Assembly: GCA_963728475.1 (NCBI GenBank)
Contig: CAVSKL010000002.1
Location: 952,358 to 1,016,357 of the forward strand
From: CAVSKL01 sp963728475 [NCBI: Candidatus Eiseniibacteriota bacterium]
Lineage (GTDB): Bacteria > Eisenbacteria > RBG-16-71-46 > JABDJR01
Direction: 5' to 3'
Length of the DNA: 64,000 bases
The notes beneath the pieces were generated by a model that did no database searches, had not been told where the DNA came from, and saw nothing but the letters and a program-made list of their open reading frames with translations. Positions 5,338 to 63,971 of the stretch are shown here, piece by piece. Within the stretch, counting starts at the first letter, position 1. Each line of letters starts with the position of its first letter. A program made the position numbers and the translations under genes.

Positions 5338-8799
<3,462 letters not shown>

Positions 8800-48079: not shown

Positions 48080-48410
48080 CGGCGACGTTTCCCGGCATCG
48101 CGCCGGCGCGGGCTCTTCCGAGTGGGCACAAACGTCACCCGTGGTATCACTCAGGCTGCACCCGACTCCGGGCGGGTCTAGAAGCCTTTGAAATCAATAG
48201 GTTTGGCGGGGCGCAATTTCGTGGTATTGGTCGGGTGGTTGCCGAAGTGCTCACTCCCGGGGGTCATTTTCGAGTGGGCGTTAGTTGCTCGCATCCCCCC
48301 CTGGATCTGGCGATCCGTGGGGTTCACTGCACCCGCAGAATGCGTCCTGCCAGTTCGGCCGAGGGGCGCGCCAAGGTCCGCTTCGACGGGCGGAAGAAGA
48401 TCGAGTCCAG

Positions 48411-48507
48411 GAGCTTCTCGATGCGCTGGGGATCGTGGCGCTCTCTCATACCACCAGCATGAGACCCCCGAGGGGGCTACGGAAGAGTGGGGTTCACAGA
48501 ACGCTTA
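48411..48507. repeat. 97-bp direct repeat, copy 1 (IS66-like end or recombinase attachment site)
   Basis: Matches 54930-55026 in the same orientation with 9 differences in 97 ungapped positions. It contains a near-palindrome TCTCATACCACCAGCATGAGA and ends GAAGAGTGGGGTTCACAGAACGCTTAC; read on the minus strand it starts GTAAGCG, as IS66-family terminal repeats do. Confidence 0.75.
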
Positions 48508-48518
48508 CACGTTTTCCA

Positions 48519-48547
48519 TTGACTCCGCCCGTCCCGAGGCGTAGACA
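48519..48547 (+). promoter_or_regulatory. Sigma-70-like promoter pointing into the beta-helix gene
   Basis: TTGACT (48519-48524), 17 bases, TAGACA (48542-48547). It starts just outside the end of repeat copy 1 and reads toward the beta-helix lipoprotein gene at 48885. Confidence 0.45.
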
Positions 48548-48884
48548 ATCACCTTCGTCGGGAGGCGGGGACGCACACCCCTTGACGCCGCATCCTCCGG
48601 CGATCCGCCCCCGGCGCACGCGCCACGCGAGAAGCTGAAAGCAGGTCAGGTCGCATGCACGCACGAAATGGCATGCGACGGTGCGTACGGGCAGGCGTAT
48701 CCCGGCACCTGGCTCACCGCGGCCGCCGCGTCATACCTTTCCTACAAGAGCTTTGTGGCCGAGCCGGCCACGGGCCCCCGCTCCAGGGGTGGTGTGCTCC
48801 GGCTGGAGCTATCCACGCCAAGAGAAGTTCGGAGTGCCGCCTGGGGTCGCCCCGTTCAGGCCGTCGAGATAGGGGGAGGTGTTG

Positions 48885-50531
48885 GTGAAACGCACCAGGC
48901 CCACAGCCATTCCTCTCTGGAGGGGGGTCATCGGCGCCGTTCTGGTGGGTGGAGCCGCGTTCGGGGGAGCCTCTTGCGGCCGCCAGGCCACCAAGCCGGG
49001 CAAGCCTCTCTGCCTGGTCGAGCCCGATACCCTGGACTTCGGCCGGGTGGAGATCGACAGCATGAAGATCCGGACGTTTGTCGTGCGGAACGCGGGAAGC
49101 GCCGGGGAGCCGGTCTCGGTTTCGCTGGGCTGCCCGCCTTTCGAGCTCCTGGAGGGAGGGGGGGACACCACCCTCGCCCCCGGTGAGTCCTTGGCGGTTC
49201 GGGTGGAGTTTGCACCCAGGGAGCGGGACTCGGTGCGGTGCGTGGTGGACCTGGGGAGCATCTCCTGTGGCGGGGTGGCGCTCATCGCCAATGCCTCCCG
49301 CACCTGGCGCATCCGACCGGACGGGACCGGGGATGCGCCGACGGTGCAGGCGGGGATCGACAGTTCGGAGGACGGCGACGTGGTGCTGGTGGGTCCGGGG
49401 ACCTACTACGAGAACATCAACCTGGAAGGGAAGGCGATTCACCTGCTGAGCAAATCTGGCCCGGTCGTGACGGTGCTGGATGGCAGCCGGGAGGACTCGA
49501 CCGTTGTCAACTGCGAGTCGGGGGAAACCAATGACACCATCATTGAGGGGTTTACGATCACGGGAGGGAGGGGGTGGACGCCTCTAGGGGACACCACCAC
49601 CAAAGCTGGTGGCGGCATTAGTTGCTACCACTCGACTCCCATAATACGAAACAACGTAATTCGCGACAATCAGGCTCTAAATGGTCCCAGAGGAGGGAAC
49701 TCACGAGGAGGGGCTATCAACATCGGATCACGTGGGGCATCCCAACCCATGATCGTGGAGGGGAACATCATCGAAGGCAACTACTGTTCACGGAATTCCG
49801 GAGGAATCAACATTGCAGGTCCCTGCATCATCCAGGACAACGTGATCCGGGGGAACTCGACGGGGACTGGGGACGGCGGTGGTCTCTACCTGCTCGGCAC
49901 GGTGGGGCACGTCGTGATCCGGAGAAATCTAATCGTGGAGAACCACGCCGCGGATCATGGGGGGGGGCTGTACCTGGGCAACGTATTCGGAGGCGACCCC
50001 AACCTTATCGAAGTGAGCGGGAACATAATCGTCGCAAATGCGGCGCTCGGTTCCGACGGGCCCGACTATTGCAGCGGCGCCGGCATTTGGGTCTTCGGGG
50101 GTGCCTACATCCATCACAACACTCTCGCCCTGAATGTTGCGGAGACCGAGGGTAGCGGTCTGACGGGAGGTGGACTCTGCCTCCGGCGCGCAGTACGGGG
50201 GACCCGGGTGGAATACAACTTGTTCTACAGGAACGACGAGGGGGGGCTCGTCACCGACGACCGCACGACGGCTGAACTCCTCCGAAACCTCTTTTACGGA
50301 GACACCAGGGCCGACATTGAGTCTCTTGATGGCGCCGAAATCTCTGAGAACGGAGACCTCTTCATGGATCCCCTCTTCTGCGACACGACCGCAACAAGCC
50401 AGGGAGGGCTGGCAGCTGGCTCTCCCGCTCTGATCCAGCCCTACGGGGTGATCGGAGCAGTTTCCGAACCGGGGTGCTCGCTACCCGAGGCGAAACCTTC
50501 CGTGTGGGCGCAGGGCTTACCGCGCGAGTAA
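48885..50531 (+). CDS. Right-handed beta-helix lipoprotein with N-terminal HYDIN/ASH-like domain
   Basis: A 548-aa exported protein from GTG 48885, five bases after GGGGGAGG. A lipoprotein-like signal ends GGAAFGGASC. Residues about 40-130 form an ASH/HYDIN-type Ig fold (LDFGRVEIDSMKIRTFVVRN, LAPGESLAVRVEFAPRERD). Then TWRIRPDGTGDAPTVQAGID opens a right-handed parallel beta-helix with many N-x-I/V turns (IIRNNVIRDN, MIVEGNIIEGN, VVIRRNLIVEN). The end DPLFCDTTATSQGGLAAGSP is the typical closing piece of such proteins. Codon use is less GC-biased than in the core genes, a sign of recent acquisition. Pectin-lyase-like fold; no catalytic residues assigned, so surface or adhesive role is as likely as an enzyme. 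Confidence 0.8.
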   Translation: MKRTRPTAIPLWRGVIGAVLVGGAAFGGASCGRQATKPGKPLCLVEPDTLDFGRVEIDSMKIRTFVVRNAGSAGEPVSVSLGCPPFELLEGGGDTTLAPGESLAVRVEFAPRERDSVRCVVDLGSISCGGVALIANASRTWRIRPDGTGDAPTVQAGIDSSEDGDVVLVGPGTYYENINLEGKAIHLLSKSGPVVTVLDGSREDSTVVNCESGETNDTIIEGFTITGGRGWTPLGDTTTKAGGGISCYHSTPIIRNNVIRDNQALNGPRGGNSRGGAINIGSRGASQPMIVEGNIIEGNYCSRNSGGINIAGPCIIQDNVIRGNSTGTGDGGGLYLLGTVGHVVIRRNLIVENHAADHGGGLYLGNVFGGDPNLIEVSGNIIVANAALGSDGPDYCSGAGIWVFGGAYIHHNTLALNVAETEGSGLTGGGLCLRRAVRGTRVEYNLFYRNDEGGLVTDDRTTAELLRNLFYGDTRADIESLDGAEISENGDLFMDPLFCDTTATSQGGLAAGSPALIQPYGVIGAVSEPGCSLPEAKPSVWAQGLPRE

Positions 50532-50671
50532 GACTTCCCCTTCTCCAAAGCGGCCCAGGGGAAGGGTAGGCAAAAGCAGGGCCGCGGAAACAAGCAGGGA
50601 CGGGGCGGTGGCCCAAGCCGGCAAGCACAGGTCCACCGCTCCCGCCCCCCGAACCGGAAAGGAGGATGGCT

Positions 50672-53455
50672 ATGAAAGCCATCTTAGTCCTCGTCCTGGT
50701 TCTGGCCGCCCTTGGTGGGGTGACCGCAACCAGGGTACAGGCGCAGACCCCGGATACGCTACTGGTTCCTTCGCATATCGGGACCATTGCGGTTGCCATG
50801 GACTCTGCGTCCGCCGGCGACCTGATCCTCGTGTCGTACGCGGATCTGAACGACCACAACGTCGCGTACTCGGACGTCTTCACCATCAAGTCTGGCGTGA
50901 AGGTCGTCGCGGCCAGCGGCCAGACCCCGATCATCGACGGGGGCAGCCTCCGTGCCACGGCGGTGGCCTTCGCGCCCGGCGCCTCGTCGAGCACGATCCT
51001 CCAGGGGTTCACGATCCGCGGAGGCACGGACACCGTGGTGGTGGTGAGGGGAAGCGGGACCATTCGGGACTGCACCATCGGCGACATTTCGAGCACCATC
51101 CCGCCCTACGGCAGCGCGGGGATCCACATCGAGGGGGACGGCAGCGTCAAGCACTGCACGATCTCGATGACGAAGCACGTTAACGCCGGGATCAGAGCGC
51201 TGGGACCGATCCTGGTCGATAGCTGCACGGTCGAGACGAACAGCGTCAATGGCCCCTCCGACGGATTCTTCCTCCAGGAATCCGGCGGTACGCCGGACCT
51301 CCAGCACAGCTCGGTCACCGGGGCCGGGGCCGGGCTCAACAACGGGGTGCTCGCGGAAGGGACGGTGACCGTTGAGAACTGCGACGTGGGCCCGACGAAC
51401 CCCAGCTCGTCGTGCAACGGCTTCGCGTTCGACGACGGGAGCCCGACGATGAGCGACTGCTCTATCACTCTTCCCGATGGCATCGGGGTCGAGAGCGGAT
51501 GGCAAGGTAACGCTACCACCCTGACGATGGTCGATTGCACCATCGATGTGGACTATGGTACCGGGATTGATTGTGAGGCAGGGTCGGTAGCTGGATTCAA
51601 TACCGTCGTCACCATTCACGAAGCAGACACGTACAACACCGGCATCCAGGTTGCAACGTCGAGTGGGCCGAACGTGTCGACGGTGAAGGGTGTCTTGGTC
51701 CGTGGACTGACGCACTACGGCGCCGGGGTTGACGTCTTCGACGACGGCGCGGTGATCGAGAACGTGACCGTGGATGGATTCGAGCTGGGCTTCTACGACA
51801 GCAACCATGGCTCGGTCAAGAACACGGTTCAGAATTGCATCGCCAGCAACTACGGCAACGTGGGGTTCGACTACGTGACGGCGGCCTACTGCATCGCCGA
51901 TGGCAGCGGGTCGACCGCATACGGTGACTGCGTGACGGACGCCACGGACAAGACCGAGGACCCGCTCTACTGCGACGCCTCGGGGGGCGCGTTCACCCTG
52001 CGGGTCGACTCCTACGGGAACCCGCACAACAACGGCAGCGGCGAGGAGATCGGCGCCTACCCGGTGGCCTGCATGTACGGGACGCTGGTCCGGGACGCGG
52101 ACTACGAGGAGGGCGGCACGCTGGACTTCCCCGGCGATCTCACGGTGCCCTCCGGGAAGACCCTCACCCTGGGGGCGGCGACCACGGTGAAGGCGGGGCC
52201 GGGGGATAGCCAGGACGGCGGGGCGGATACCACCCTGACCGAACTCGTCGTGGACGGGACCCTGGACGTGACGGGGACCTCCGCAGACGGTGTCACCTTC
52301 GACTCGGGGGCGTCGCCCAGAGGCGAAGGGGACTGGTACGGCCTCTACGCCGGGGACGGGTCCACCATGAACCTGGCCTACGCGACGGTGAAGTACGCGG
52401 AGACGGGGGCAGCTTACGACGACGCGGACGGAGGGATCGTGCGCCACTGCACGTTCTCCAACAACGAGGACCTGGACCTCGTGGTCGGCGTCTACTCCAG
52501 CTCGTCGGTCGAGGTCGACACCTGCACGGTGGACGTGGGAGGCGGGAGCGGCATCCAGCTCACCAACGACGGGAGCGGAGTAAACCTCATCGGGAACTCC
52601 GTTTACGGAGGTTTCTCCAGCGTCCGGGGGATCTACGGCCTCCTGGACTCGGGGACCGGCACCGCAAGCGGTAACTCGGTGAGCGGCTTCGTGTTCGGCT
52701 CCGCCATCGGGATCCACTCGGGCGGGATGACGTTCGTCAAGAACAACGTCTCCGGGTCCAAGTACGGGTTCGAGGTGACCGGGGGGACGGCGGTCCTGGG
52801 CGACACCACCGACTCGGGGAGCGACAACCTGGCCCACGGGAACACCGACGGCCTGTACTGCACCGGGGCCGGGGCGGCGCCCACGGTGCGGGAGTCCCAG
52901 TTCTACTCGAACAGCGTGGGGGTGCTGGCCCGGAGCAGCGCCTCGCCGGACCTGGGGAACAGCGCGCACCACGGCTACAACTCGTTCTACAGCAACACGA
53001 GCTACTGCGTGCGAAACACCACGTCGGGAACGGCGGTGGACGCGCTCGGGGACTGGTGGGGGAGCTGCAGCGCGCCGACCTGCACGAGCGGGCCGGTGCT
53101 GACGTTGCTGTGGCTCTGCAGCCAGCCCGCGAGCGTGGAGGAGCCGATCGCCCAGGTGGGCGACGGCCGGCCCGGGTTCCGGGTGATGGGCGCGGCCCCC
53201 AATCCCACGGCGGGAGCGGGACGGATCCTCTTCCACCTGGACGGCGCCCCGTCGCGGGTGGAGGCCCAGGTGTTCGACGTGGCCGGGCGGCTGGTGCGGT
53301 CGCTGGGCCCCGAGGAGTTCCCGGCCGGGGATCAGGCCCTGACCTGGGACGGCCGGGACCGCTCCGGCCGGCCGGTGGGCGAAGGCCTCTACTTCGTCCG
53401 GGTCCAGGCGGGGTCGGAGCCCGCCGCCACCACCAAGATCCTGGTCGTCCGGTAG
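50672..53455 (+). CDS. Secreted right-handed beta-helix protein with C-terminal sorting tail
   Basis: A 927-aa exported protein. ATG 50672 lies six bases after AAAGGAGG; the ATG at 50666 touches that site. The signal peptide is MKAILVLVLVLAALGGVTAT. Residues about 35-830 are right-handed beta-helix coils (ILQGFTIRGGTDTVVVVRGS, IVRHCTFSNNEDLDLVVGVY, ASGNSVSGFVFGSAIGIHSG). The last about 90 residues are the shared sorting cassette (RVEAQVFDVAGRLVRSLGPE, LTWDGRDRSGRPVGEGLYFV). It stands 17 bases before a small DNRLRE-like gene, evidently one operon. Likely cell-surface or secreted; ligand unknown. Confidence 0.82.
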   Translation: MKAILVLVLVLAALGGVTATRVQAQTPDTLLVPSHIGTIAVAMDSASAGDLILVSYADLNDHNVAYSDVFTIKSGVKVVAASGQTPIIDGGSLRATAVAFAPGASSSTILQGFTIRGGTDTVVVVRGSGTIRDCTIGDISSTIPPYGSAGIHIEGDGSVKHCTISMTKHVNAGIRALGPILVDSCTVETNSVNGPSDGFFLQESGGTPDLQHSSVTGAGAGLNNGVLAEGTVTVENCDVGPTNPSSSCNGFAFDDGSPTMSDCSITLPDGIGVESGWQGNATTLTMVDCTIDVDYGTGIDCEAGSVAGFNTVVTIHEADTYNTGIQVATSSGPNVSTVKGVLVRGLTHYGAGVDVFDDGAVIENVTVDGFELGFYDSNHGSVKNTVQNCIASNYGNVGFDYVTAAYCIADGSGSTAYGDCVTDATDKTEDPLYCDASGGAFTLRVDSYGNPHNNGSGEEIGAYPVACMYGTLVRDADYEEGGTLDFPGDLTVPSGKTLTLGAATTVKAGPGDSQDGGADTTLTELVVDGTLDVTGTSADGVTFDSGASPRGEGDWYGLYAGDGSTMNLAYATVKYAETGAAYDDADGGIVRHCTFSNNEDLDLVVGVYSSSSVEVDTCTVDVGGGSGIQLTNDGSGVNLIGNSVYGGFSSVRGIYGLLDSGTGTASGNSVSGFVFGSAIGIHSGGMTFVKNNVSGSKYGFEVTGGTAVLGDTTDSGSDNLAHGNTDGLYCTGAGAAPTVRESQFYSNSVGVLARSSASPDLGNSAHHGYNSFYSNTSYCVRNTTSGTAVDALGDWWGSCSAPTCTSGPVLTLLWLCSQPASVEEPIAQVGDGRPGFRVMGAAPNPTAGAGRILFHLDGAPSRVEAQVFDVAGRLVRSLGPEEFPAGDQALTWDGRDRSGRPVGEGLYFVRVQAGSEPAATTKILVVR

Positions 53456-53472
53456 GAAAGGAGTTGGGTGTC

Positions 53473-54015
53473 ATGAAGTCGCGCAAGATGAGCTTGCTGT
53501 TGGTGATGGCGGCGGCGGCGCTCTGCCTCCCCCGCCTTGGTGAGGCCAAGGTGCTGACCCTGAGCCCGGCCCAGGTGGCCGCGCTCCCGGCCGACTCGCT
53601 CCGGCAGGCGCGGGCGGCGGTCCAGTTCGACGTCTCCGCGCTTCCGGATGCGGCGAAGATCCGGATCGACTCGGCGGTCTTCCAGTGCCCGGTGCCCGAG
53701 GCGTCCTCGCGCGAGGAGACCGAGTTTCAGGTGTTCCCGCTCGAGAACGCGTGGTCGGTGAACGCGGTGGGCGCGGGGAGCTATCCCCAGGCGTCCGCCA
53801 CCGAGGCCACGGCGTGGGCGATCACGCCGCTGGACTACGAGCGGGAGGGAGGGGGGTTCCTTCGCCTCTTCCTCGATGACTTGGTCCGGGGGTGGGTGAA
53901 AGGGACGACCGCCAACCACGGCTTCGTCATCGTCACGGACCTGTCGTCCACCGGGCTGGTCAACACGCTCAGCGCCGGCACGCTCACGATTCGCTGGGCC
54001 TACAAGGAACGGTAG
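53473..54015 (+). CDS. Small secreted DNRLRE-like protein
   Basis: A 180-aa exported protein with signal peptide MKSRKMSLLLVMAAAALCLP and a single beta-sandwich like DNRLRE / disaggregatase-type domains (AAVQFDVSALPDAAKIRIDS, LRLFLDDLVRGWVKGTTANH, GFVIVTD, TLTIRWAYKER). ATG 53473 is eight bases after AAAGGAG, 17 bases downstream of the beta-helix gene. A fragment of a related gene lies at 62545-62761, again next to a beta-helix gene, so the two families seem to travel together. Role unknown. Confidence 0.7.
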   Translation: MKSRKMSLLLVMAAAALCLPRLGEAKVLTLSPAQVAALPADSLRQARAAVQFDVSALPDAAKIRIDSAVFQCPVPEASSREETEFQVFPLENAWSVNAVGAGSYPQASATEATAWAITPLDYEREGGGFLRLFLDDLVRGWVKGTTANHGFVIVTDLSSTGLVNTLSAGTLTIRWAYKER

Positions 54016-54027
54016 GAAAATAAACAG

Positions 54028-54055
54028 GGCCGGGGCCCGAACCCGGGCTCCGGCC
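54028..54055 (+). terminator. Hairpin terminator after the beta-helix/DNRLRE operon
   Basis: GGCCGGGGCCCG and CGGGCTCCGGCC form a 12-bp stem (one G-T pair) with a four-base loop, 13 bases after the stop codon. No T-run follows. Confidence 0.5.
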
Positions 54056-54232
54056 GCTGCGTCCCCTACCGGCGCACCGCGGGGGTGAGATCTGGCTGGA
54101 GTAAGCGGGCAGATACCAGGAGCGTGACCCACGCGGACTACCATCGGAGGCTATGGGGATCGCGGCCTGAGGGCAAGCACTCCCTGCCCCGGCCCCGGGG
54201 GGGCTCGGCGTTCTTTCCCTTGATCTTCCCTC

Positions 54233-54257
54233 CCTGGCAACGCCTCATGTTGCCAGG
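54233..54257 (+). promoter_or_regulatory. Perfect hairpin covering part of the recombinase Shine-Dalgarno
   Basis: CCTGGCAAC (54233-54241) pairs with GTTGCCAGG (54249-54257) around a seven-base loop. The last three bases of the right arm are the first bases of the AGGAGG ribosome site (54255-54260) of the recombinase, so folding should hinder its translation. Confidence 0.55.
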
Positions 54258-54267
54258 AGGATAACCG

Positions 54268-54852
54268 ATGCCCTATCTCAGCCCACCTACCTTGACCCGC
54301 GTCGAACAGGAGGCGCTCCTGGTAGCAAGCTCCGCCCACCCCCGCGACCACCTCATCTTCTCCCTGGCTCTCGGAACCGGACTACGGCTGTCGGAGATCG
54401 TGGGGCTGAACGTGGGGGATCTGTACTTCCCGGATGGGAGGCCGCGGGGACGCGATCCGACTGCGCGGGAGATCGCCAAGGGAGGCCGCGTCGGCGACGT
54501 GTTCCTGCCGGATGCGCTGGCACCCAAGCTCGTGACGTTCTGGGCGTACAAGCTGCGGGCCGGGGAATCCATCACGCATGACGCCCCGCTCCTCTGCAGC
54601 CAGACCGGCACCCGTATCTCCAAGCGCCGCGTCCAGGTCGCGTTCAAGCAGTGGCAGGCGGTTGCTTGCTTCGATCGGCCTTATCCTCTCCATGCCCTCC
54701 GCCACACCGCCGTGACCAACGTCTACCGGGCGTCCAGGGACCTGTTCCTGGCCCAGAGGTTCGCGAGGCACGCGTCGCCGCTCACGACCACGATCTACAT
54801 GCATGCCTCGGACGAGGAGCTCGCCGAGGGGGTCAGGGGAATTCGGTGCTGA
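54268..54852 (+). CDS. Tyrosine recombinase/integrase (catalytic domain)
   Basis: A 194-aa site-specific recombinase of the phage integrase/XerD type. It carries the catalytic residues Arg in GTGLRLSEIVGLNV, His-x-x-Arg in LHALRHTAVTN, His/Arg in FARHASPLTT, and the nucleophile Tyr in TTIYMHASDEEL; the beta-hairpin Lys is likely in EIAKGGRVGDV. The usual N-terminal SAM-like arm domain is almost absent, so the protein is a nearly bare catalytic domain. ATG 54268 follows AGGAGGATAACCG, but a perfect hairpin overlaps that site. The 3' end runs into a 97-bp repeat (54930) whose other copy lies 6.5 kb upstream, the expected layout of an integrase near its attachment site. Active or not is unknown. 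Confidence 0.88.
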   Translation: MPYLSPPTLTRVEQEALLVASSAHPRDHLIFSLALGTGLRLSEIVGLNVGDLYFPDGRPRGRDPTAREIAKGGRVGDVFLPDALAPKLVTFWAYKLRAGESITHDAPLLCSQTGTRISKRRVQVAFKQWQAVACFDRPYPLHALRHTAVTNVYRASRDLFLAQRFARHASPLTTTIYMHASDEELAEGVRGIRC

Positions 54853-54929
54853 ACGCTACCTGTACCTCGCCCCCCGGATTCGGCGGCCAGATCGAACCGG
54901 GTCAAGCCCCCCCGCTCGCGCCGGGCCAA

Positions 54930-55054
54930 GAGCTTCTCGATGTGCTTGGGATCGTGCCGCTGTCTCATGCCACCAGCATGAGACCCCGGGGCGGGCTACG
55001 GAAGAGTGGGGTTCACAGAACGCTTGCGAAGAGTGGGGTTCACAGAACGCTTAC
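54930..55054. repeat. 97-bp direct repeat, copy 2, with a tandem end duplication
   Basis: 54930-55026 matches copy 1; here the palindrome is perfect (TCTCATGCCACCAGCATGAGA). The last 25 bases, GAAGAGTGGGGTTCACAGAA plus CGCTT, are repeated once more at 55028-55052. On the minus strand the frame MRQRHDPKHIEKLLARRERG, GLTRFDLAAESG reads like the N-terminus of an IS66-type TnpA that has lost its remainder. Confidence 0.75.
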
Positions 55055-55061
55055 CACTCAT

Positions 55062-55742
55062 CTACTTGTAGAGCGCCTTCAACCGTCCCCAGGTCGTCCG
55101 CTCCACCGGCGTGCCCTTGCAGCCGATCTCCGGAACAGCTCCGATCGGCCCATTCGGAGCGTTGTACGCCGGGGAGTCATCCCTCAGGGAGAAGTCCCCG
55201 TTTTCCCGGTCACAGAAGAACGGATCGGCGACGATGTTCCCGTTGCGGTCCCACCACGCCGGGCACTCCCCGACCCCGTCTCCCCCAGAGTTCTGCCACG
55301 CGAGGTTGTCTTGCAGGAGCGGTGTAGCGCCCGTTCCACACTGGATTCCGCCACCAACGCAGTAAGCCAGGATGTTCCGCGCAATTAGAGGCGTTCCAGA
55401 GTACCCGCCAAAGTCACAAGAGATGGCGCCTCCATAGCTCGCATCAGTCCTGCACCCAACTACGGTATTCTCGACCAATTCGTAATTCACTCCAAATACA
55501 TCTATGACCCCTCCTCCAAATTCTGCGTTATCTCGTTTCCGGGCCCAGCACTCCCACACGATGTTTCTGCGAACGGTGACGAATATCCCCCCCAGTCCGG
55601 GAGCGGTCATCAAAACCATGCCCCCCCCTTTTGTCAAACGCCACGTTCCCAACAAATACGGCGGCGTCCGGATAGTTGTGGAAAAAGGTTCAGGCGGACC
55701 CTCCGAGCCTCCGGAACCTGTCAACGAGAATGAGACACTCAT
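55062..55742 (-). pseudogene. Beta-helix protein, C-terminal half (gene split by insertion sequences)
   Basis: A 226-codon frame encoding the end of a right-handed beta-helix protein (YELVENTVVGCRTDASYGGA, TPLIARNILAYCVGGGIQCG, GNIVADPFFCDRENGDFSLR). It has no signal peptide or credible start. Its missing first half is at 61667-62548 on the same strand, about 5.9 kb upstream in gene order. The region also has a likely one-base shift at the C8 run 55621-55628: upstream of it the neighbouring frame reads FHNYPDAAVFVGNVAFDKRG, which fits a beta-helix coil, while the annotated frame does not. So the gene is both interrupted and frame-damaged. Confidence 0.75.
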
Positions 55743-55751
55743 CGCGTGAAT

Positions 55752-56870
55752 TTACTGTACGGCCTTGATGAGACCCGACCCCTTGAGAGGGGGGGTACTC
55801 CGGTGACTCCCCAGGTCGAGATCGTTGATCCTGGGACTTCCCTGTGCGTCGATCTCGCGTCGCGATCCGACGATTCCCTCAGTGGAGCGTTCGACCTCGA
55901 TCTTCGGCTTGTTGATCCAAACCTCCCGGGGAAGCGCCGGCGGCTGAGGATTGCCGTTCGTGAACCGTTCCGGATGGGCGGCGTGCGCCTGCGCCAGCAC
56001 GGCGGCGCGCCGGGCGAGCTTCTCCTGCGCGAGTCCGTAGTGCACGTCGTGCGGCGTCAGCAGCCCAAGTCCGCTGTGGCGGTGCTCGGTGTTGTACCAC
56101 GGGAAGAAGTCACCGCCGTGAGCTCGGGCGTCTTGGATCGAGCCGAAGCGTTCCGGAAAGTCCGGCCGGTACTTGAGCGTCTTGAACTGGCTCTCGGAGT
56201 ACGGGTTGTCGTTCGAGACATGCGGTCGGGAGTGCGTTTTTGTGACTCCTAGGTCGGCCAACAGGAACGCCACGGGTTTGGACTTCATCGACGAACCTCG
56301 GTCGGCGTGGATCGTGAGCTGGCCCGGCACGATCCCCTGCCTCGCGCACGACTCCTCGATGAGCCGCCGGGCCAGCACCGCCGACTCCCGGTACGCTACC
56401 ATCCAGCCGACGACGTAGCGGCTGAAGACGTCGAGGATCACGTAGAGGTAGTAGTACGTCCACTTGGCCGGCCCCAGGAGCTTGGTGATGTCCCAACTCC
56501 AAAGCTCACGCGGGCGCGTGGCCAGAAGCTCGGGAGCCGCGTAGGACGGGTGCCTCAGCTGGTCTCGCCGCTCCCGCACTTCGCGATTCGCGGCCAGGAT
56601 GCGATACATGGTCCGCTCCGAGCACAGGTAGTTTTCCTCGTCGAGGAGCGTCGCATAGACTTCGGCCGGGGCAAGGTCCGCGAATCGAGGCTCGTGAAGG
56701 ACCTCAAGCACCGCATCCCGCTCCTCGGGAGTCAATGCCCGGGGGATCGTGCGAGGCTGGGGATCCGGCCTGGGACTGAGGCTGCGGTAGTACGTCGCCC
56801 GGGAGAGCGCCAGAGCGGCGCAGGTGGGAGCAACGCCCAGCCCGGGACCGACGGCCTGTACCGTCTGCAT
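55752..56870 (-). CDS. IS3-family transposase OrfB (DDE integrase core)
   Basis: A 372-aa transposase with an rve-type integrase core: Asp in LWSWDITKLLGPAKWTYYYL, Asp in LTIHADRGSSMKSKPVAFLL, and Glu in NDNPYSESQFKTLKYRPDFP. The N-terminal helix-turn-helix region is CAALALSRATYYRSL. ATG 56870 shares one base with the orfA stop (TGATG). In orfA an A8 run (minus strand, 56928-56921) is positioned for a -1 frameshift; the orfB frame is open from there, so an OrfAB fusion is expected. The C-terminus runs slightly past the inferred left inverted repeat, ending GSGLIKAVQ. Confidence 0.9.
   Translation of the reverse strand: MQTVQAVGPGLGVAPTCAALALSRATYYRSLSPRPDPQPRTIPRALTPEERDAVLEVLHEPRFADLAPAEVYATLLDEENYLCSERTMYRILAANREVRERRDQLRHPSYAAPELLATRPRELWSWDITKLLGPAKWTYYYLYVILDVFSRYVVGWMVAYRESAVLARRLIEESCARQGIVPGQLTIHADRGSSMKSKPVAFLLADLGVTKTHSRPHVSNDNPYSESQFKTLKYRPDFPERFGSIQDARAHGGDFFPWYNTEHRHSGLGLLTPHDVHYGLAQEKLARRAAVLAQAHAAHPERFTNGNPQPPALPREVWINKPKIEVERSTEGIVGSRREIDAQGSPRINDLDLGSHRSTPPLKGSGLIKAVQ
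55787..55835 (+). repeat. Dispersed ~50-bp repeat, copy 1
   Basis: Contains GGGGGGTACTCCGG and TCGAGATCGTTGATCCTGGG. The same block occurs inverted at about 57481-57530 and direct at about 60494-60549, each near the 3' end of a transposase gene. CCCAGG and CCTGGG within it can pair into a hairpin. Confidence 0.6.
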
Positions 56871-57280
56871 CAGCGCCTCCCGTTGCTCTCGGAGAGCTCG
56901 ATCCCCAAAAGCTGCGAGAGTTTTTTTTGGACCTCGACCAGGCCTTCCGCACGCTCGGCACGCGCCCGGGACCGCCTGAGCTCGCGCTCCAGTTCTGAGA
57001 TCCGCTTGTCCCGCGGATCGGGTGGCTGCACCTTGGGGCCGCGCTTCCTGGGCCGGAGCCCGGCCAGCTCACCCCGGGAACGGGCAGCTCGCCAAGCGGA
57101 CAGATGCGAGGAGTACAACCCCTCGCGTCGGAGCAGCGCTCCCATCTCCCCGGGCTTGCTGCAAGCTTCGGCCTCCTGCAAGACCCGCCGCTTGTACTCC
57201 GCCGTGAACCGCCGCCGCTGTGCCTTGGCCAAAACCTCAACCTCTCGATCGTTCGTCCTGACTTCCGTCTCGCTCCCCAT
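56870..57280 (-). CDS. IS3-family transposase OrfA (helix-turn-helix)
   Basis: A 136-aa DNA-binding protein of the IS3 OrfA type: RRRFTAEYKRRVLQEAEACS and GALLRREGLYSSHLSAWRAA give the helix-turn-helix, followed by a leucine-zipper-like coil (ISELERELRRSRARAERAEG). The A8 slip site lies in the codons for EVQKKLSQLL near its C-terminus. Stop overlaps the orfB start by one base. Confidence 0.88.
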   Translation of the reverse strand: MGSETEVRTNDREVEVLAKAQRRRFTAEYKRRVLQEAEACSKPGEMGALLRREGLYSSHLSAWRAARSRGELAGLRPRKRGPKVQPPDPRDKRISELERELRRSRARAERAEGLVEVQKKLSQLLGIELSESNGRR

Positions 57281-57550: not shown

Positions 57551-57913
57551 TCACGCGCTCTTCCTTTCCTCGGTTGTCAACCACTCAGCGAGCTTCTGAT
57601 ACCCGTCGACCTTTCGCAGCCGGATCGCTCCCGAGGCGATCAGGCCGAACAAGAGCACCAACGCCGCGGCCTCCGTGGGAAACGAGCCCTGGGTCTTGAC
57701 CCGGCGCCGGAACTCCCCATTGATCCGCTCGATCAGGTTGGTCGTCCGCAAGCTCTTCCACATCTCCGGCGGAAACCCATAGAACGTCAGCAGATCCGTC
57801 CCCGCCTCCTTCAGGCTGGTCACCACCTCCGGCACCAACTTCTGCCACTTCTGGCAGAACGCCGCGTAGGCCTTCTCCGCCTCCTCGCGATCCCCGGCAT
57901 GGGTGATGCCTGC
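57551..57913 (-). pseudogene. IS256 (Mutator)-type transposase, C-terminal part
   Basis: Codes for the last 120 residues of an IS256-family transposase: THAGDREEAEKAYAAFCQKW, LRTTNLIERINGEFRRRVKT with the catalytic Glu, and LVLLFGLIASGAIRLRK. The frame runs into the left end of the IS21-type element; residues before YAGITHAG in the open frame are translated IS21 terminal repeats. Joining 57913 to the N-terminal part at 60777 through the duplicated ATAGT restores an uninterrupted 402-aa protein (KRDYAGITHAGDREE). Confidence 0.88.
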
Positions 57914-57918
57914 ATAGT
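57914..57918. repeat. 5-bp target-site duplication, left copy
   Basis: ATAGT directly before the TG end of the IS21-type element; the second copy is at 60777-60781. Confidence 0.85.
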
Positions 57919-57924
57919 TGACTA

Positions 57925-58081
57925 TTCCGAGCGATTCCGCCCCCCGATTCCGAGCGAAGACGCCCACCCTTCCGACTGATCGCGCCCGCTGATTCCGAGC
58001 GAAGCCGGCCACCGTTCCGAGGGAAGGCGCCCACCGTTCCGAGGGAAGGCGCCCACCGTTCCGAACGAAGCCGCCCACCCC
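57925..58081 (+). repeat. Multiple terminal repeats of the IS21-type element, left end
   Basis: Seven tandem units of 22-23 bases, each beginning TTCCGA, for example TTCCGAGGGAAGGCGCCCAC; two adjacent units are identical. These are transposase (IstA) binding sites in known IS21 elements. Confidence 0.8.
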
Positions 58082-58152
58082 GGTTCGGGGGTGGCGGCGC
58101 GGGGTAACCGGGCTACGCTGAGCCTTTCTCTCATCCCAGAGGAGGACCCCGC

Positions 58153-59714
58153 GTGCCAGCTAAGAGGTTACCCATGCGCAAGATCCAAGATGTGCTGCGG
58201 CTTCGCGCCGCCGGACTCAGCCACCGCCAGATCGCCCGCAGCCTGGGGCTGGGGCGGACCACGGTCCGAGAGTACCTGGCCCGGGCCCAGCGGGCCGGGC
58301 TGGCCTGGCCGGTGGCCGAGGACCGGAGCGAGACGGACCTGGAGCAGCTCCTGTTCCCCGCCGCCCACCCCTTCCCGGAGCGAGGGCGGCCCCGGCCCGA
58401 CTGGGCGTGGGTCCACCAGGAGCTGCGCCGTCCCGGGGTCACGCTCTCGTTGCTGTGGCAGGAGTACCGGGCCGGTCATCCGCGGGACGGGTACCAGTAC
58501 AGCCGCTTCTGTGACCTCTACCACCGCTTCGCCGGGAAGCTCTCCCCCTCGATGCGCCAGGTCCATGTGGCCGGCGAGAAGACCTTCGTGGACTTCTCGG
58601 GCAATAGGCCCGCCATCGTGGATCCGAAGACGGGGGAGGTGACCGAGGTCGAGCTGTTCGTGGCCGCCCTGGGGGCCAGCGGCTACGTCTACGCCGAGGC
58701 CACCCCCAGCCAGGATCTGGACTCCTGGATCACCGCCCACCAGAACATGGCGGCCTACCTCGGCGGTTCCACGGCGATCTGGGTCCCGGACAATCTGAAG
58801 AGCGGGATCACCACCCCCTGTCGCTACGAGCCGGGGGTGAACCGGACCTACGAGGAACTCGCCGCCCACTACGGCGCGGTGGTCATCCCCGCCCGGGTCC
58901 GGCGCCCCAAGGATAAGGCGAAGGTCGAGTTGTCCGTGCTGCTCGCCCAGCGCTGGATCCTCGCCGTGCTCCGCAACCGCACCTTCTTCTCGCTCGAGGA
59001 GCTCAACGCCGCCATCCGCGACGAGCTCGACCGCCTCAACGACCGTCCTATGCAGAAGCTCAAGGTGAGCCGCCGCCAGCTCTTCGAAGCACTCGATCGC
59101 CCCGCCCTGCGGCCCCTCCCCCTCGGCCGCTACGAGAAGGGCATCTGGAGCTACCCCCGAGTCAACATCGACTACCACGTCGAGGTCGAGAACAACTACT
59201 ACAGCGTCCCCTACCAGCTCCTGAAGGAAGTGGTGGAGGCACGGACCACCGCCACCACCGTCGAGATCATCTTCCACTCCAAGCGCGTCGCCTCCCATCG
59301 GCGGCTACGCGGCCGGGGACGCCACTCCACTCACCGCGACCACATGCCCGCCTCCCACCGGGCCCACCTCAGTGGACCCCCTCCCGGCTCGTTCGCTGGG
59401 CCGAGAAGACCGGCCCCCACGCCGCCGAACTTGTGACCCACATCCTCGACACCCGGCCCCACCCCGAGCAGGGCTACCGCTCCTGTCTCGGCCTCATGCG
59501 CCTGGGCAAGAAGTACGGTGAGGCGCGTCTCGAAGCCGCCTCCCGGCGGGCGCTCCACCTGCGTTCCTACAGCTACCGCACCGTCAAGAACATCCTCTCC
59601 GCCGGAACCGACCGGCTCCCGCTGGAGACCGAGTCGCCCGCCCCGGCCGCACCCTCCCACGAGAACATCCGCGGCGCCGCCTACTACGCCGCCCCAAAGG
59701 AGATCCCATGCTGA
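58153..59714 (+). pseudogene. istA: IS21-family transposase IstA, one-base frameshift
   Basis: IS21 transposase: helix-turn-helix LRAAGLSHRQIARSLGLGRT, DDE core (KTFVDFSGNRPAIVDPKTGE; AIWVPDNLKSGI; ARVRRPKDKAKVELSVLLAQ). The first frame runs from GTG 58153 to 59436. Near 59371 the coding moves to the next frame: HMPASHRAHL should continue WTPSRLVRWAEKTGPHAAEL and MTHILDTRPHPEQGYRSCLG to 59714. One missing base at that point explains it. Ribosome site AGAGGAGG precedes the GTG by seven bases. The 3' end overlaps istB by seven bases, as usual in this family. Confidence 0.88.
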
Positions 59715-60618
59715 ACCAAGCCACCCTGGACAAGATGCAGGCCATGAAGCTCTCGGCCATGATCGAGGCCTTCGAGCAGCAGACCGCCTCCCGCCAGGCC
59801 GCCGGCCTGAGCTTCGACGAGCGCCTCGGCCTCCTGGTCGACGCCGAGTGGACCCACCGCGAACAGCGCAAGCTCGCCCGCCGGCTCAAGGGAGCCAAGC
59901 TCCGCTACCCGGCCTGTTCGAGGACGTCGACTTCCGCGCCTCCCGGGGGCTCGACCGCCAGGTCGTCCTCTCCCTCGGCACCTGCGGCTGGATCCAGGAG
60001 CACCAGAACCTCGTGCTGACCGGACCCACCGGCACCGGCAAGAGCTTCCTCGCCTGCGCGTTCGCGGAGCGGGCTTGCCGGCGCGGGTTCACCGCCACCT
60101 ATGTCCGGACTCCCCGGATCCTTCACGAACTCGCCGTCGCCCGCGGCGATGGCTCCTACGAACGGCTCCTGGCCCGGCTCCTCAAGGTGGAGCTGCTGGC
60201 CATCGACGACTGGCTCGTGGCTCCGCTGCGCGACGCCGAGCGGCGCGACCTGCTCGAGGTCCTGGAGGATCGCCACGAGCGGGCCTCCACCCTCATCGCC
60301 TCCCAGCTGCCCATCACCGCCTGGCACGAGGCGATCGGGGAACCCACCCTGGCCGACGGGATCGTGGACCGGCTCCTGCACCGCTCGCACCGCATCCCGC
60401 TCAAAGGAGCCTCGATGCGCCAGACCGAACCCCTGACCCCGGCCACGGAGAAGAGAGAAGAAGAAGAAGCCCCAATCCAGAACCCCGTGATCCGGGGGGG
60501 GTACCCCAGGTCCCGGCCGGGCCGAGATCGTCGCTCCTGGAGCTTCTCTCAGGTCGGATCCCGGTGCCTGGACCCGAGACCGGAAAATCAGGCTACCAAC
60601 CCGGGACCGACCCGGTAA
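59708..60618 (+). pseudogene. istB: IS21-family helper ATPase IstB, one-base frameshift
   Basis: AAA+ helper of IS21 transposition. MLNQATLDKMQAMKLSAMIE to KGAKLRYPAC is in the first frame; near 59920 it shifts, and FEDVDFRASRGLDRQVV, Walker A LTGPTGTGKSFLACAFA, Walker B VELLAIDDWLVAP and TLIASQLPITAWHEAIG follow in the next frame. The normal end would be near 60460; the frame instead runs on to 60618 through a dispersed repeat, giving an unusual 50-residue tail. Probably inactive unless the shift is a sequencing error. Confidence 0.85.
60494..60549 (+). repeat. Dispersed ~50-bp repeat, copy 3
   Basis: Reads GGGGGGGGTACCCCAGG and CCGAGATCGTCGCTCCTGG, similar to 55787-55835 and the inverse of 57481-57530. 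Located at the 3' end of istB. Confidence 0.55.
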
Positions 60619-60682
60619 GATGCGACCCACGACCCTGACGAGGAACCCAACGACACAATCCCCGCGTCGCTACGCTCCGACG

Positions 60683-60776
60683 GTGGCCGGAATCCTTCGG
60701 AACCGGCGGGCGTCTTCGCTCGGAACGGGTGGGCGCCTTCCTTCGGACCAGGTGGGCGCCTTCGTCGGAATAGCCA
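60683..60776 (-). repeat. Multiple terminal repeats of the IS21-type element, right end
   Basis: About four inverted copies of the left-end unit (for example TCGGAACGGGTGGGCGCCTT), ending TCGGAATAGCCA at the element border. Confidence 0.75.
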
Positions 60777-60781
60777 ATAGT
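60777..60781. repeat. 5-bp target-site duplication, right copy
   Basis: ATAGT directly after the right end of the IS21-type element; matches 57914-57918. Confidence 0.85.
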
Positions 60782-61622
60782 CCCGCTTCAGCTCCTCGTG
60801 GCAGTGCTTCGGCGCCTTCGCCTTCAGGTTCTCCCACTTGTGGTTCGTGCACCGCTGCAGCTCCGCCTGCGGCCAGACCGCCTGCACCGCGCCGATCAGC
60901 CCCGCGTTCCCGTCCACCAGAACCAGGCGCGGGGAGGCCATCCCCCGACTCGCCAGCCCCTCGACCACCCCGTCCCACGCCTTGCGGCTCTCGCTCGGCG
61001 CCACCCGCAGCTCCAACAGCTCCTTCTCCCCAGTCACCCGAACCCCAATCACCACCTGCACCGGCACCTTCACCACCCGACGCGCCATCCGGATCGGCAG
61101 CCGGATCCCATCCAGAACCAGGATCGGGTAGCTTTCCGCGCTCAGATCCCGACTCCGCCACCCCTGGAACACCCCCTGCAGCCGCTTCGTCAACCGCGAC
61201 ACCGCGCTCCGCGACAGCCCCGTCCCCTCCACCAACGGCTTCAGGGCCAGCTTCACCTTCCGCGTGTTCGCCCCCGTCAGATAACTGCTCAGGACCGCCG
61301 CATCCAGCCGGCGCGTCCGCCGCTGGTAGCGCCGGACCAGCTGGCTCTCGAACTCCTGCGTCCCCGCCTCGTTCTTCAGCCGGCCTCGTGGCACCGCGAT
61401 CTCCACCGGACCAAACGAGGTCAACAGCTTGCGCGGCTCCCGGGTGCCGTGGCGGTAGCCCGCCCGGCCAGGGGTCCTCTCATGGCTGGCCGCCCCCAGA
61501 GCCGACTCGAGCTCCTCATCCAACACCGCGGCAATGACTTCCCGAATCCGACCCCGGATCAACGTCTCCAGGTCGTGAAAATCACTTCTCGGCGCGAGCA
61601 CCTGTGCGGTACGATCATCCAT
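60777..61622 (-). pseudogene. IS256 (Mutator)-type transposase, N-terminal part
   Basis: First 282 residues of an IS256-family transposase, from ATG 61622 (MDDRTAQVLAPRSDFHDLET). Family marks: REVIAAVLDEELESALGA, RAGYRHGTREPRKLLTSFGP, catalytic Asp in PILVLDGIRLPIRMARRVVK, second Asp in RLVLVDGNAGLIGAVQAVWP, and ELQRCTNHKWENLKAKAP. After KRDY the frame enters IS21 sequence. The rest of the protein is at 57551-57913. Inactive because of the insertion. Confidence 0.9.
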
Positions 61623-61666: not shown

Positions 61667-62548
61667 TCATCCGGAGAATACGCCTTTTCCCTTTTTCAAC
61701 AACTCCCGAGACGGGACCACAAATACATTACCCTCAATGATACTGCCCTCATGTGGGTAGATTATCGCAACCCCGCCACCATCTGCGTATTTGGTTTCAT
61801 TATTCGCGATGTAGTTATCGACCAATTCAAAACCGGCGTCTCCGAAATACACCCCTGCCCCAAGAGCAAAAGTCGTTGAATTGAACTGAATTGTATTTCC
61901 CTCCACCTGGCACTTTGCAGTCCCGATACAAGTCACCCCGCCTCCATTCGGCCCAGCATTATGCACGATTCGATTCTTGACTATGCGTGGGCTCGCGTAC
62001 CACACCGCGACACCAAGCCCTCCGCCCTGAATGGTAAATCCCTCGACAAGAGTTCTCTGGCTCTGTCCTCCCTCTATGGACACAACGGTACCCGTCGGAT
62101 GTGTTAGGGCAACGTTCGAGGTCCCGGGCGAGAAGGCGCTTGCCGTCAGATTGCCGCGGAAGTTGGAGGCGCGGGGATCCCCGTTGATCACCGTCGCGTC
62201 CGGTCCGCTGGTCGACTTGATGACCAGTTCCTTCGTAAGAAGGTTGATGTTCTCATTGTAAATACCCGGGCCGACGAGCAACGTGTCTCCGCTCGCAGCG
62301 CTGTCGATACCAGCCTGGATGGTCGGAGCGTCGCCGGTGCCATCAAACAGGATCGACCAAGTAGCCCCGGAACACACCTGCGGCAGCGCCGCGAGGGCAC
62401 AGACCAGAACTCCAACCCCGGTGGATACTCGAATCCTGACCTCTCTACGTTCGCTCTTCCAGGCGCCGGCGCACTCCCTCACTGAGATGTTGGGCGGGAA
62501 CAAGGGGTCGGCAAGGACCCCGGCGCCCGCCAGCCCTCGCCGCCTCAC
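61667..62548 (-). pseudogene. Beta-helix protein, N-terminal half (gene split by insertion sequences)
   Basis: Encodes a signal-like hydrophobic segment (STGVGVLVCALAALPQVCSG), then TWSILFDGTGDAPTIQAGID and beta-helix coils (TLVEGFTIQGGGLGVAVWYA, RIVKNRIVHNAGPNGGGVTC, CQVEGNTIQFNSTT). It closely resembles the start of the beta-helix part of the gene at 48885. It stops after GSIIEGNVFV in sequence belonging to the inserted elements (exact border near 61670-61700). The open frame begins at GTG 62548, which overlaps the stop of the upstream DNRLRE-like fragment (GTGA); this places 40 odd residues before the signal segment. An ATT sits where a start codon would suit better. The second half is at 55062-55742. 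Confidence 0.75.
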
Positions 62549-62761: not shown

Positions 62762-62817
62762 CCCCGATTTGATGGACACCTTGAAAAGGTGGGATGATCC
62801 CACCGAGGAGGGAGTCC

Positions 62818-63126
62818 ATGAAGAAGGCTCGGCGGTCGTACACCCGGGAATTCAAGATCGAAGCGGTTCGCCAGGTCGTGGAGCAGAACCGGACGGTGGC
62901 GGAGGTAGCCCGAGAGCTGGGGATCGGTGCTGGTCTGCTCGGCCTGTGGAAGCAGCAGGTTCTGGCCGATCCGGTGGAGCCGTTTCCAGGAAAGGGTCGG
63001 GTCAAGGTGGCGGAGGAGGAACTTCGGCGATTGGAGCGCGAGAATCGGCAACTCCGCCAGGAGCTTGAATTTGTAAAAAAAACGGCGGCGTACTTCGCGA
63101 AGGAACGCTCGCGAGGTTCCGTGTGA
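62818..63126 (+). CDS. IS3-family transposase OrfA
   Basis: A 102-aa helix-turn-helix protein (MKKARRSYTREFKIEAVRQV, VAEVARELGIGAGLLGLWKQ) with a C-terminal leucine zipper (RRLERENRQLRQELEFVKK). GAGGAGGG precedes the ATG. An A8 run at 63075-63082 in the codons for VKKTA allows a -1 frameshift directly into the orfB frame, which is open from there, so an OrfAB fusion transposase is expected. Stop overlaps the orfB start (GTGA). Confidence 0.93.
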   Translation: MKKARRSYTREFKIEAVRQVVEQNRTVAEVARELGIGAGLLGLWKQQVLADPVEPFPGKGRVKVAEEELRRLERENRQLRQELEFVKKTAAYFAKERSRGSV

Positions 63127-63971
63127 TCGAGATGAACGAAACCAGCTACGCCATCGTCATGATGTGCAGGGTTCTGGAGGTATCCCGGGCTGGATACTAC
63201 GCGTATCGGAGGCGGCCGCCCAGTCGGCGGGAGCTGGAGGACCGTGATTTGGTCCAGCAGATCCGTGCGGCGCAGAGAGCGAAGCGGCAGTGCTACGGCA
63301 GTCCGCGCATGACGAAGAGCCTGCGGGCTCTGGGCCATCGGTGCGGACGTCACCGCGTGGCACGTCTGATGCGGGAGAACGACTTGGGGGCGCGCCGCAG
63401 AAAGCGGTTCCGCAGGACGACGGACTCGAACCACTCCCTTCCCTGCGCCGCCAACCTGCTTGACCGGCAATTCAGGGTCTCGAAACCGAACGCCGTGTGG
63501 GCCGGCGACGTGACCTACATCCGGACCCGGGAGCGCTGGCTCTACCTGGCGATCATGTTGGACCTCTACTCCCGCAAGGTCGTCGGCTGGGCCATGGGCA
63601 CGGACAACGACACCAAACTGGTCTTGCGGGCCCTGGCCATGGCCGTGGCCACCCGGAAGCCCGCGCCCGGCCTGATCTTTCATTCGGATCGAGGCAGTAC
63701 CTACGCGGCGAAGGCCTTCACTAAAGAGCTCAAGCGTCTGGGCATCCGGCCAAGCATGAGCCGGAAGGCAAACTGCTGGGACAACGCCGTCTCCGAGAGC
63801 TTCTTCGCCTTGTACAAGACGGAGTGGATGCCGGAAGAAGGCTACGATACGATCACCGAGGGCCTGGGGGACACGTTCCGCTACATCGAGGCCTTCTACA
63901 ATCGGGAGCGCCTTCACTCGTACCTCGGGTACGTCAGCCCGGCTGCCTTCGAGGCCGCTCACATTGCGTAA
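63123..63971 (+). CDS. IS3-family transposase OrfB (DDE integrase core)
   Basis: A 282-aa transposase, intact and of normal length. HTH_21 region QCYGSPRMTKSLRALGHRCG, then the rve core with Asp in NAVWAGDVTYIRTRERWLYL, Asp in GLIFHSDRGSTYAAKAFTKE, and Glu in NCWDNAVSESFFALYKTEWM; YNRERLHSYLGYVSPAAFEA closes it. Unlike the IS21 and IS256 elements to its left, both frames are undamaged, so this copy may be functional. Confidence 0.95.
   Translation: MIEMNETSYAIVMMCRVLEVSRAGYYAYRRRPPSRRELEDRDLVQQIRAAQRAKRQCYGSPRMTKSLRALGHRCGRHRVARLMRENDLGARRRKRFRRTTDSNHSLPCAANLLDRQFRVSKPNAVWAGDVTYIRTRERWLYLAIMLDLYSRKVVGWAMGTDNDTKLVLRALAMAVATRKPAPGLIFHSDRGSTYAAKAFTKELKRLGIRPSMSRKANCWDNAVSESFFALYKTEWMPEEGYDTITEGLGDTFRYIEAFYNRERLHSYLGYVSPAAFEAAHIA

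What the first reader, a model, noticed from the sequence alone, without database searches (positions are those of the whole stretch)
48411..55054. Surface-protein segment bracketed by a 97-bp direct repeat with a tyrosine recombinase at one end
Seen: two ungapped 97-bp copies (about 91% identical) in the same orientation, each with the palindrome TCTCATgCCACCAGCATGAGA and the end GAAGAGTGGGGTTCACAGAA, enclose two beta-helix proteins, a DNRLRE-like protein and a short recombinase whose 3' end points at copy 2. Two readings compete: attachment sites of an integrative or phase-variable cassette, or two remnants of IS66-type left ends (they start GTAAGCG and a TnpA-like MR-x-RHDP-xx-IEKLL frame). 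The tandem end duplication at copy 2 is also unusual. If the first reading holds, this could be an undescribed system for moving surface beta-helix genes.
Basis: partly seen in the sequence, partly recalled or inferred. Interest (0 to 1): 0.62.

Follow-up and report, generated by a model that had tools for sequence, protein, structure and literature searches.

The report
Two leftover IS66 transposon ends
The repeated bases on either side of some beta-helix surface-protein genes are most likely leftover ends of two copies of a common kind of jumping gene (IS66 family), so the recombinase gene beside them probably has nothing to do with them and the finding is ordinary.

Summary
In detail: two direct copies (48407-48506 and 54926-55025, 91 of 100 identical) share a 27-bp end that is tandemly duplicated at copy 2. 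The copies start at GTAAGCG and their outer flanks are unrelated. The first 24 bases match an annotated ISPpu13-family end (8/8 target duplication) at 19 positions, and nothing else in the window matches as well. A genome-collection scan with a 20-mer of this end gave one stretch. Its genome holds 29 such sites with up to one mismatch, and 9 of the 20 loci fetched show 109-137-bp inverted-repeat units with 8-bp duplications. No right end, shared 8-bp flank or TnpB/TnpC remnant was found here. The copies lie in a lower-GC, IS-rich zone that runs on past copy 2. The 194-aa recombinase is an Xer-like catalytic domain with nothing linking it to the repeats. An att-site cassette is not supported, but the window's genome was not held, so empty sites could not be sought.

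The parts
48407..48508 (-). Copy 1: orphan IS66-type left end. Terminal repeat 48508-48482, palindrome about 48444-48464, first frame MRERHDPQRIEKLL from ATG 48449; similarity to copy 2 stops at 48407.
54926..55054 (-). Copy 2: orphan IS66-type left end with a tandem second terminal-repeat unit (55054-55028 and 55027-55001); first frame MRQRHDPKHIEKLL from ATG 54968 stays open for 57 codons, its last part antisense to the recombinase 3' end.
54268..54852 (+). 194-aa tyrosine recombinase, catalytic domain only, Xer-like; neighbour, no link to the repeats shown
   Evidence: Phage_integrase 4e-19; aligned to residues 135-308 of XerA 5hxy
54229..54260 (+). Stable hairpin that pairs the AGGAGG before the recombinase start (9-bp perfect arms 54233-54241 / 54249-54257)
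   Evidence: z -5.16
48879..50531 (+). Beta-helix-type protein between the copies
50666..53455 (+). Beta-helix protein with FlgD-like C-terminal domain between the copies
53473..54015 (+). 180-aa protein with no Pfam match

Best explanation
The two repeats are solo left ends of two related, not identical, IS66-family insertion sequences. Each was inserted with its left end at the higher coordinate and its body running to lower coordinates, and each later lost the rest of the element. They are direct repeats because both had the same orientation. Similarity stops at GTAAGCG because that is the tip of the transposon. The palindrome lies over the start of the first IS frame, where it might limit translation. 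The tandem 27-bp unit is a local duplication of the terminal repeat. The surface-protein genes and the recombinase simply lie between two transposon scars in an IS-rich zone. Shown: the end sequence, its likeness to IS66 ends, and the failure to find right ends, shared flanks or TnpB/TnpC. Inferred: loss by deletion, the TnpA nature of the short frame, a role of the palindrome, the origin of the tandem unit, and the absence of a role for the recombinase.
For: GTAAGCG terminus and unrelated outer flanks ACGTTTTC / CACTCATC. IS66 described with 20-30-bp repeats starting GTAAGCG and 8-bp direct repeats (PMC11946415, passage). End of the ISPpu13-family element in L036 (22/24 between its own ends, 8/8 duplication) matches at 19 of 24, reached in the window only at 48508 and 55054. 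Same kind of end in genome G001: 29 sites with up to 1 mismatch, none in the other 43 genomes of its phylum that were searched; 9 of 12 inverted pairs found have 8-bp flanks differing at 0-2 positions. Lower-GC, IS-rich setting.
Against: No right end within 6 mismatches over 20 bases on the + strand and no matching 8-bp flank in the window, so the IS66 duplication cannot be shown at either copy. The TnpA-like frame has no profile match and only a chance-like tblastn match. tblastn with 5 TnpC, 4 TnpB and 2 TnpA proteins gave nothing below E 0.011; one chance-level TnpC piece (E 0.84) falls at 48195-48380 on the minus strand, where copy 1's body would lie. The published ISPsko1 end matches at 17 of 24, but one unrelated place in the window also reaches 17. 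Folded whole, the two repeats are no more stable than shuffles (z -0.20 and -0.63), so the palindrome is weak evidence for translational control. The tandem unit is not explained.
Confidence: 0.92

Rival explanations
1. The repeats are attL and attR (or recombination sites) of a 6.5-kb integrative or phase-variable cassette of surface-protein genes moved by the adjacent tyrosine recombinase.
For: Direct orientation, recombinase inside and next to one copy; its catalytic residues look intact in the alignment with XerA (my reading of it).
Against: The repeat is an IS66-type end; similarity covers 100 bp at 91% rather than an identical short core; the lower-GC zone goes on past copy 2; the recombinase is only 31-36% identical to the 20 plasmid relatives listed of 357; no relative in viral contigs.
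Confidence: 0.03
2. 54101-55054 is a 954-bp unit with IS66-type ends that carries the recombinase as a passenger gene.
For: GTAAGCG on the + strand at 54101 faces the end at 55054 and encloses just the recombinase. Genes carried in IS66-family elements are reported (fosZ with ISPa75, PMC12888890, passages).
Against: Only the 7-mer matches: 54101 is not among matches with up to 7 mismatches over 20 bases, and the 8-bp flanks TGGCTGGA / CACTCATC share no base. GTAAGCG occurs 5 times in the window with 2.83 expected.
Confidence: 0.04

Closest known systems
IS66-family insertion sequences with GTAAGCG ends (ISPpu13-family element in L036; ISPsko1 in PMC12888890)
   Same: GTAAGCG terminus; 19 of 24 (ISPpu13 family) and 17 of 24 (ISPsko1) bases of the end; first frame begins soon after the end (nt 60 in copy 1, nt 87 in copy 2; TnpB at nt 86 in L036)
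   Different: No right end, no 8-bp duplication, no TnpB or TnpC found; tandem duplicated end; in L036 the first annotated gene is TnpB, not a TnpA
IS66-type MITEs of genome G001
   Same: GTAAGC end, 19 of 24 bases
   Different: Those are short units with both ends and 8-bp duplications; the window has single ends followed by a coding-like frame
XerA/XerC/XerD-type tyrosine recombinases
   Same: Catalytic domain aligned over nearly its full length; NCBIfam XerA/XerC models at 4.5e-21 / 6.6e-20, far below their cut-offs
   Different: 194 aa, no N-terminal core-binding domain; 31-36% identity to listed plasmid relatives

Membership tests
IS66 family | Terminal repeat of 20-30 bp starting GTAAGCG | tested here: met
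   Both copies; 19 of 24 with an ISPpu13-family end; definition from PMC11946415 passage
IS66 family | Inverted partner end | tested here: not met
   None within 6 mismatches over 20 bases on the + strand: these are solo ends, not an element
IS66 family | 8-bp target duplication | tested here: inconclusive
   No right end, hence nothing to compare; no flank-matching site found
IS66 family | TnpA/TnpB/TnpC genes | tested here: not met
   tblastn of 11 IS66 proteins, best E 0.011 at an unrelated place; short TnpA-like frame unconfirmed
Integrative or phase-variable cassette with att sites | Recombinase with a complete catalytic domain | tested here: met
Integrative or phase-variable cassette with att sites | Repeats delimit the segment of different composition | tested here: not met
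   GC 0.722 before 48079, 0.663 between the copies, 0.650 after 55054
Integrative or phase-variable cassette with att sites | Empty site or circular form | not testable with these tools
   No genome or reads held for the window

The most novel reading that the evidence does not exclude
A 954-bp mobile cassette (54101-55054) with IS66-type ends that carries a stand-alone tyrosine recombinase, its ribosome-binding site closed in a hairpin, as passenger, so that an IS66 transposase would spread a site-specific recombinase.
Probability: 0.04. Interest if true: 0.5.

Novelty: new member of a known kind. Interest (0 to 1): 0.1.

Why it matters
It replaces a tempting reading (a recombinase-driven cassette of surface genes) with an ordinary one: two transposon scars of the same family in the same orientation. 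It also records an IS66-type end in a high-GC, probably uncultured lineage. If the passenger reading held, it would join DDE transposition to a tyrosine recombinase.

Tried and rejected
att-site cassette: no positive evidence, see rivals. Integron attC site: considered from memory only and dropped; no call tested it. Right end at 54101: tested, not supported. TnpA nature of the first frame: no profile match; tblastn of a 32-aa peptide in plasmids gave 13 records at E 3-7, of which I opened one, a Tn3 transposase. DNA searches: 195 bp of copy 2 in plasmids, 5 records, at most 27% covered; 221 bp of copy 1 in phages, 162 records, none covering 80%. Viral contigs: repeat end 0, recombinase 0, recombinase hairpin 0. 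IS66 controls: 5 of 8 loci resolved with 8/8 duplications (L026, L029, L002 did not; these 5 have GTAA ends that are not GTAAGCG, with 7-12 of 24 identity to the window's left end), and 1 of 6 (L033 and L034 gave no candidate; L035, L037, L038 did not resolve). One genome neighbourhood of a recombinase relative was looked at (L024): its protein is longer and the place showed nothing in common.

Full report
Observation. The window holds two ungapped direct copies, 48407-48506 and 54926-55025, identical at 91 of 100 positions. The end GAAGAGTGGGGTTCACAGAACGCTT occurs exactly three times (48482, 55001, 55028) and never in 100 shuffles. Between the copies lie two beta-helix-type proteins, a 180-aa protein without Pfam match and a 194-aa Phage_integrase-family protein. 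The description is correct.

What the repeat is. On the minus strand copy 1, and the outer unit of copy 2, begin GTAAGCGTTCTGTGAACCCCACTCTTC. A palindrome follows over an ATG that opens the frame MR[EQ]RHDP[QK][RH]IEKLL. The next bases outward are unrelated, ACGTTTTC and CACTCATC. A paper states that IS66 has 20-30-bp terminal repeats starting GTAAGCG and finds 8-bp direct repeats (PMC11946415, passages seen); another prints an IS66-family end starting GTAAGCG (PMC12888890, passages seen).

Controls. I fetched annotated IS66 loci from plasmid records and looked for inverted ends with an 8-bp duplication. In one search, 5 of 8 loci resolved with 8/8 duplications; their ends start GTAA but not GTAAGCG. 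In one search, 1 of 6 resolved: the ISPpu13-family element of L036 (2022-4062), ends 22 of 24 alike, duplication 8/8. Its left end matches the window end at 19 of 24 positions, and only 48508 and 55054 in the whole window reach that. The printed ISPsko1 end matches at 17 of 24, a level that one unrelated place also reaches.

Independent occurrence. A scan of the genome collection with GTAAGCGTTCNGTGAACCCC gave one stretch. Its genome G001 holds 29 matches with up to one mismatch; the other 43 genomes searched in its phylum hold none. Twenty of the 29 places were fetched (L004-L023). In them 12 inverted pairs were found, and 9, in 9 different loci, are 109-137 bp long with 8-bp flanks differing at 0 to 2 positions; the other 3 pairs have unlike flanks (L001 was left out as it is the contig of L004). 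So this kind of terminal sequence belongs to elements that make 8-bp duplications.

Why relics. On the + strand no partner end within 6 mismatches over 20 bases exists, and no 8-bp flank match next to an end. tblastn with 5 TnpC, 4 TnpB and 2 TnpA proteins gave a best E of 0.011 at 6948-7058, then 0.044 at 62809-62949, which is the OrfA of an IS3 element. A chance-level TnpC piece (E 0.84) lies at 48195-48380 on the minus strand, where copy 1's body would be; I do not rely on it. The copies stay alike for 14 codons of the first frame. In copy 2 that frame stays open for 57 codons, its last part antisense to the recombinase; where IS sequence ends there is not known. That the frame is TnpA fits its position but has no profile support.

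Setting. GC is 0.722 up to 48079, 0.663 between the copies and 0.650 after 55054. To the right lie an IS3 (55752-57280), an IS256 transposase in two pieces around an IS21 (57551-61622), and a second IS3 (62794-63971). Two more transposon scars are no surprise there.

The recombinase. Its 194 aa cover only the catalytic domain (residues 5-187 against 135-308 of XerA 5hxy), and the 20 plasmid relatives listed of 357 are about 31-36% identical. A hairpin closes its ribosome-binding site (z -5.16), as if its translation were kept low; this is unexplained. Nothing links it to the repeats. The repeats themselves, folded whole, are no more stable than shuffles (z -0.20, -0.63).

Rivals and limits. 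The cassette reading cannot be formally excluded, since no genome or reads of the source were held. A 954-bp IS66-ended unit with the recombinase as passenger rests on a 7-base match only. I put the IS66-end reading at 0.92.

Noticed in passing
54229-54260: Hairpin with 9-bp perfect arms and 7-base spacer closes the ribosome-binding site of the recombinase (z -5.16). It could be translational control, an operator or a recombination core site; no other copy in the window or exact match in viral contigs.
   Followed up: partly
57551-61622: An IS256 transposase on the minus strand is in two pieces (profile positions 20-274 and 280-370) with an IS21 (IstA/IstB) between them, i.e. nested insertions. 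Tandem 22-45-bp repeats at 57925-58079 may be the IS21 end repeats (recalled).
   Followed up: partly
55062-55742 and 61667-62548: Two minus-strand beta-helix-like pieces on either side of the IS cluster look like halves of one interrupted gene; the second half's match is weak (Beta_helix 0.012 for 55062-55742, 2.1e-7 for 61667-62548).
   Followed up: partly
62794-63971: Second IS3-family element, OrfA 9.5e-16 and OrfB 9.3e-104.
   Followed up: yes
L036:2022-2058: The left end of the ISPpu13-family element is followed at once by an inverted GCGCTTAC, a second end-like motif that may parallel the tandem end at copy 2.
   Followed up: no
   Followed up: partly
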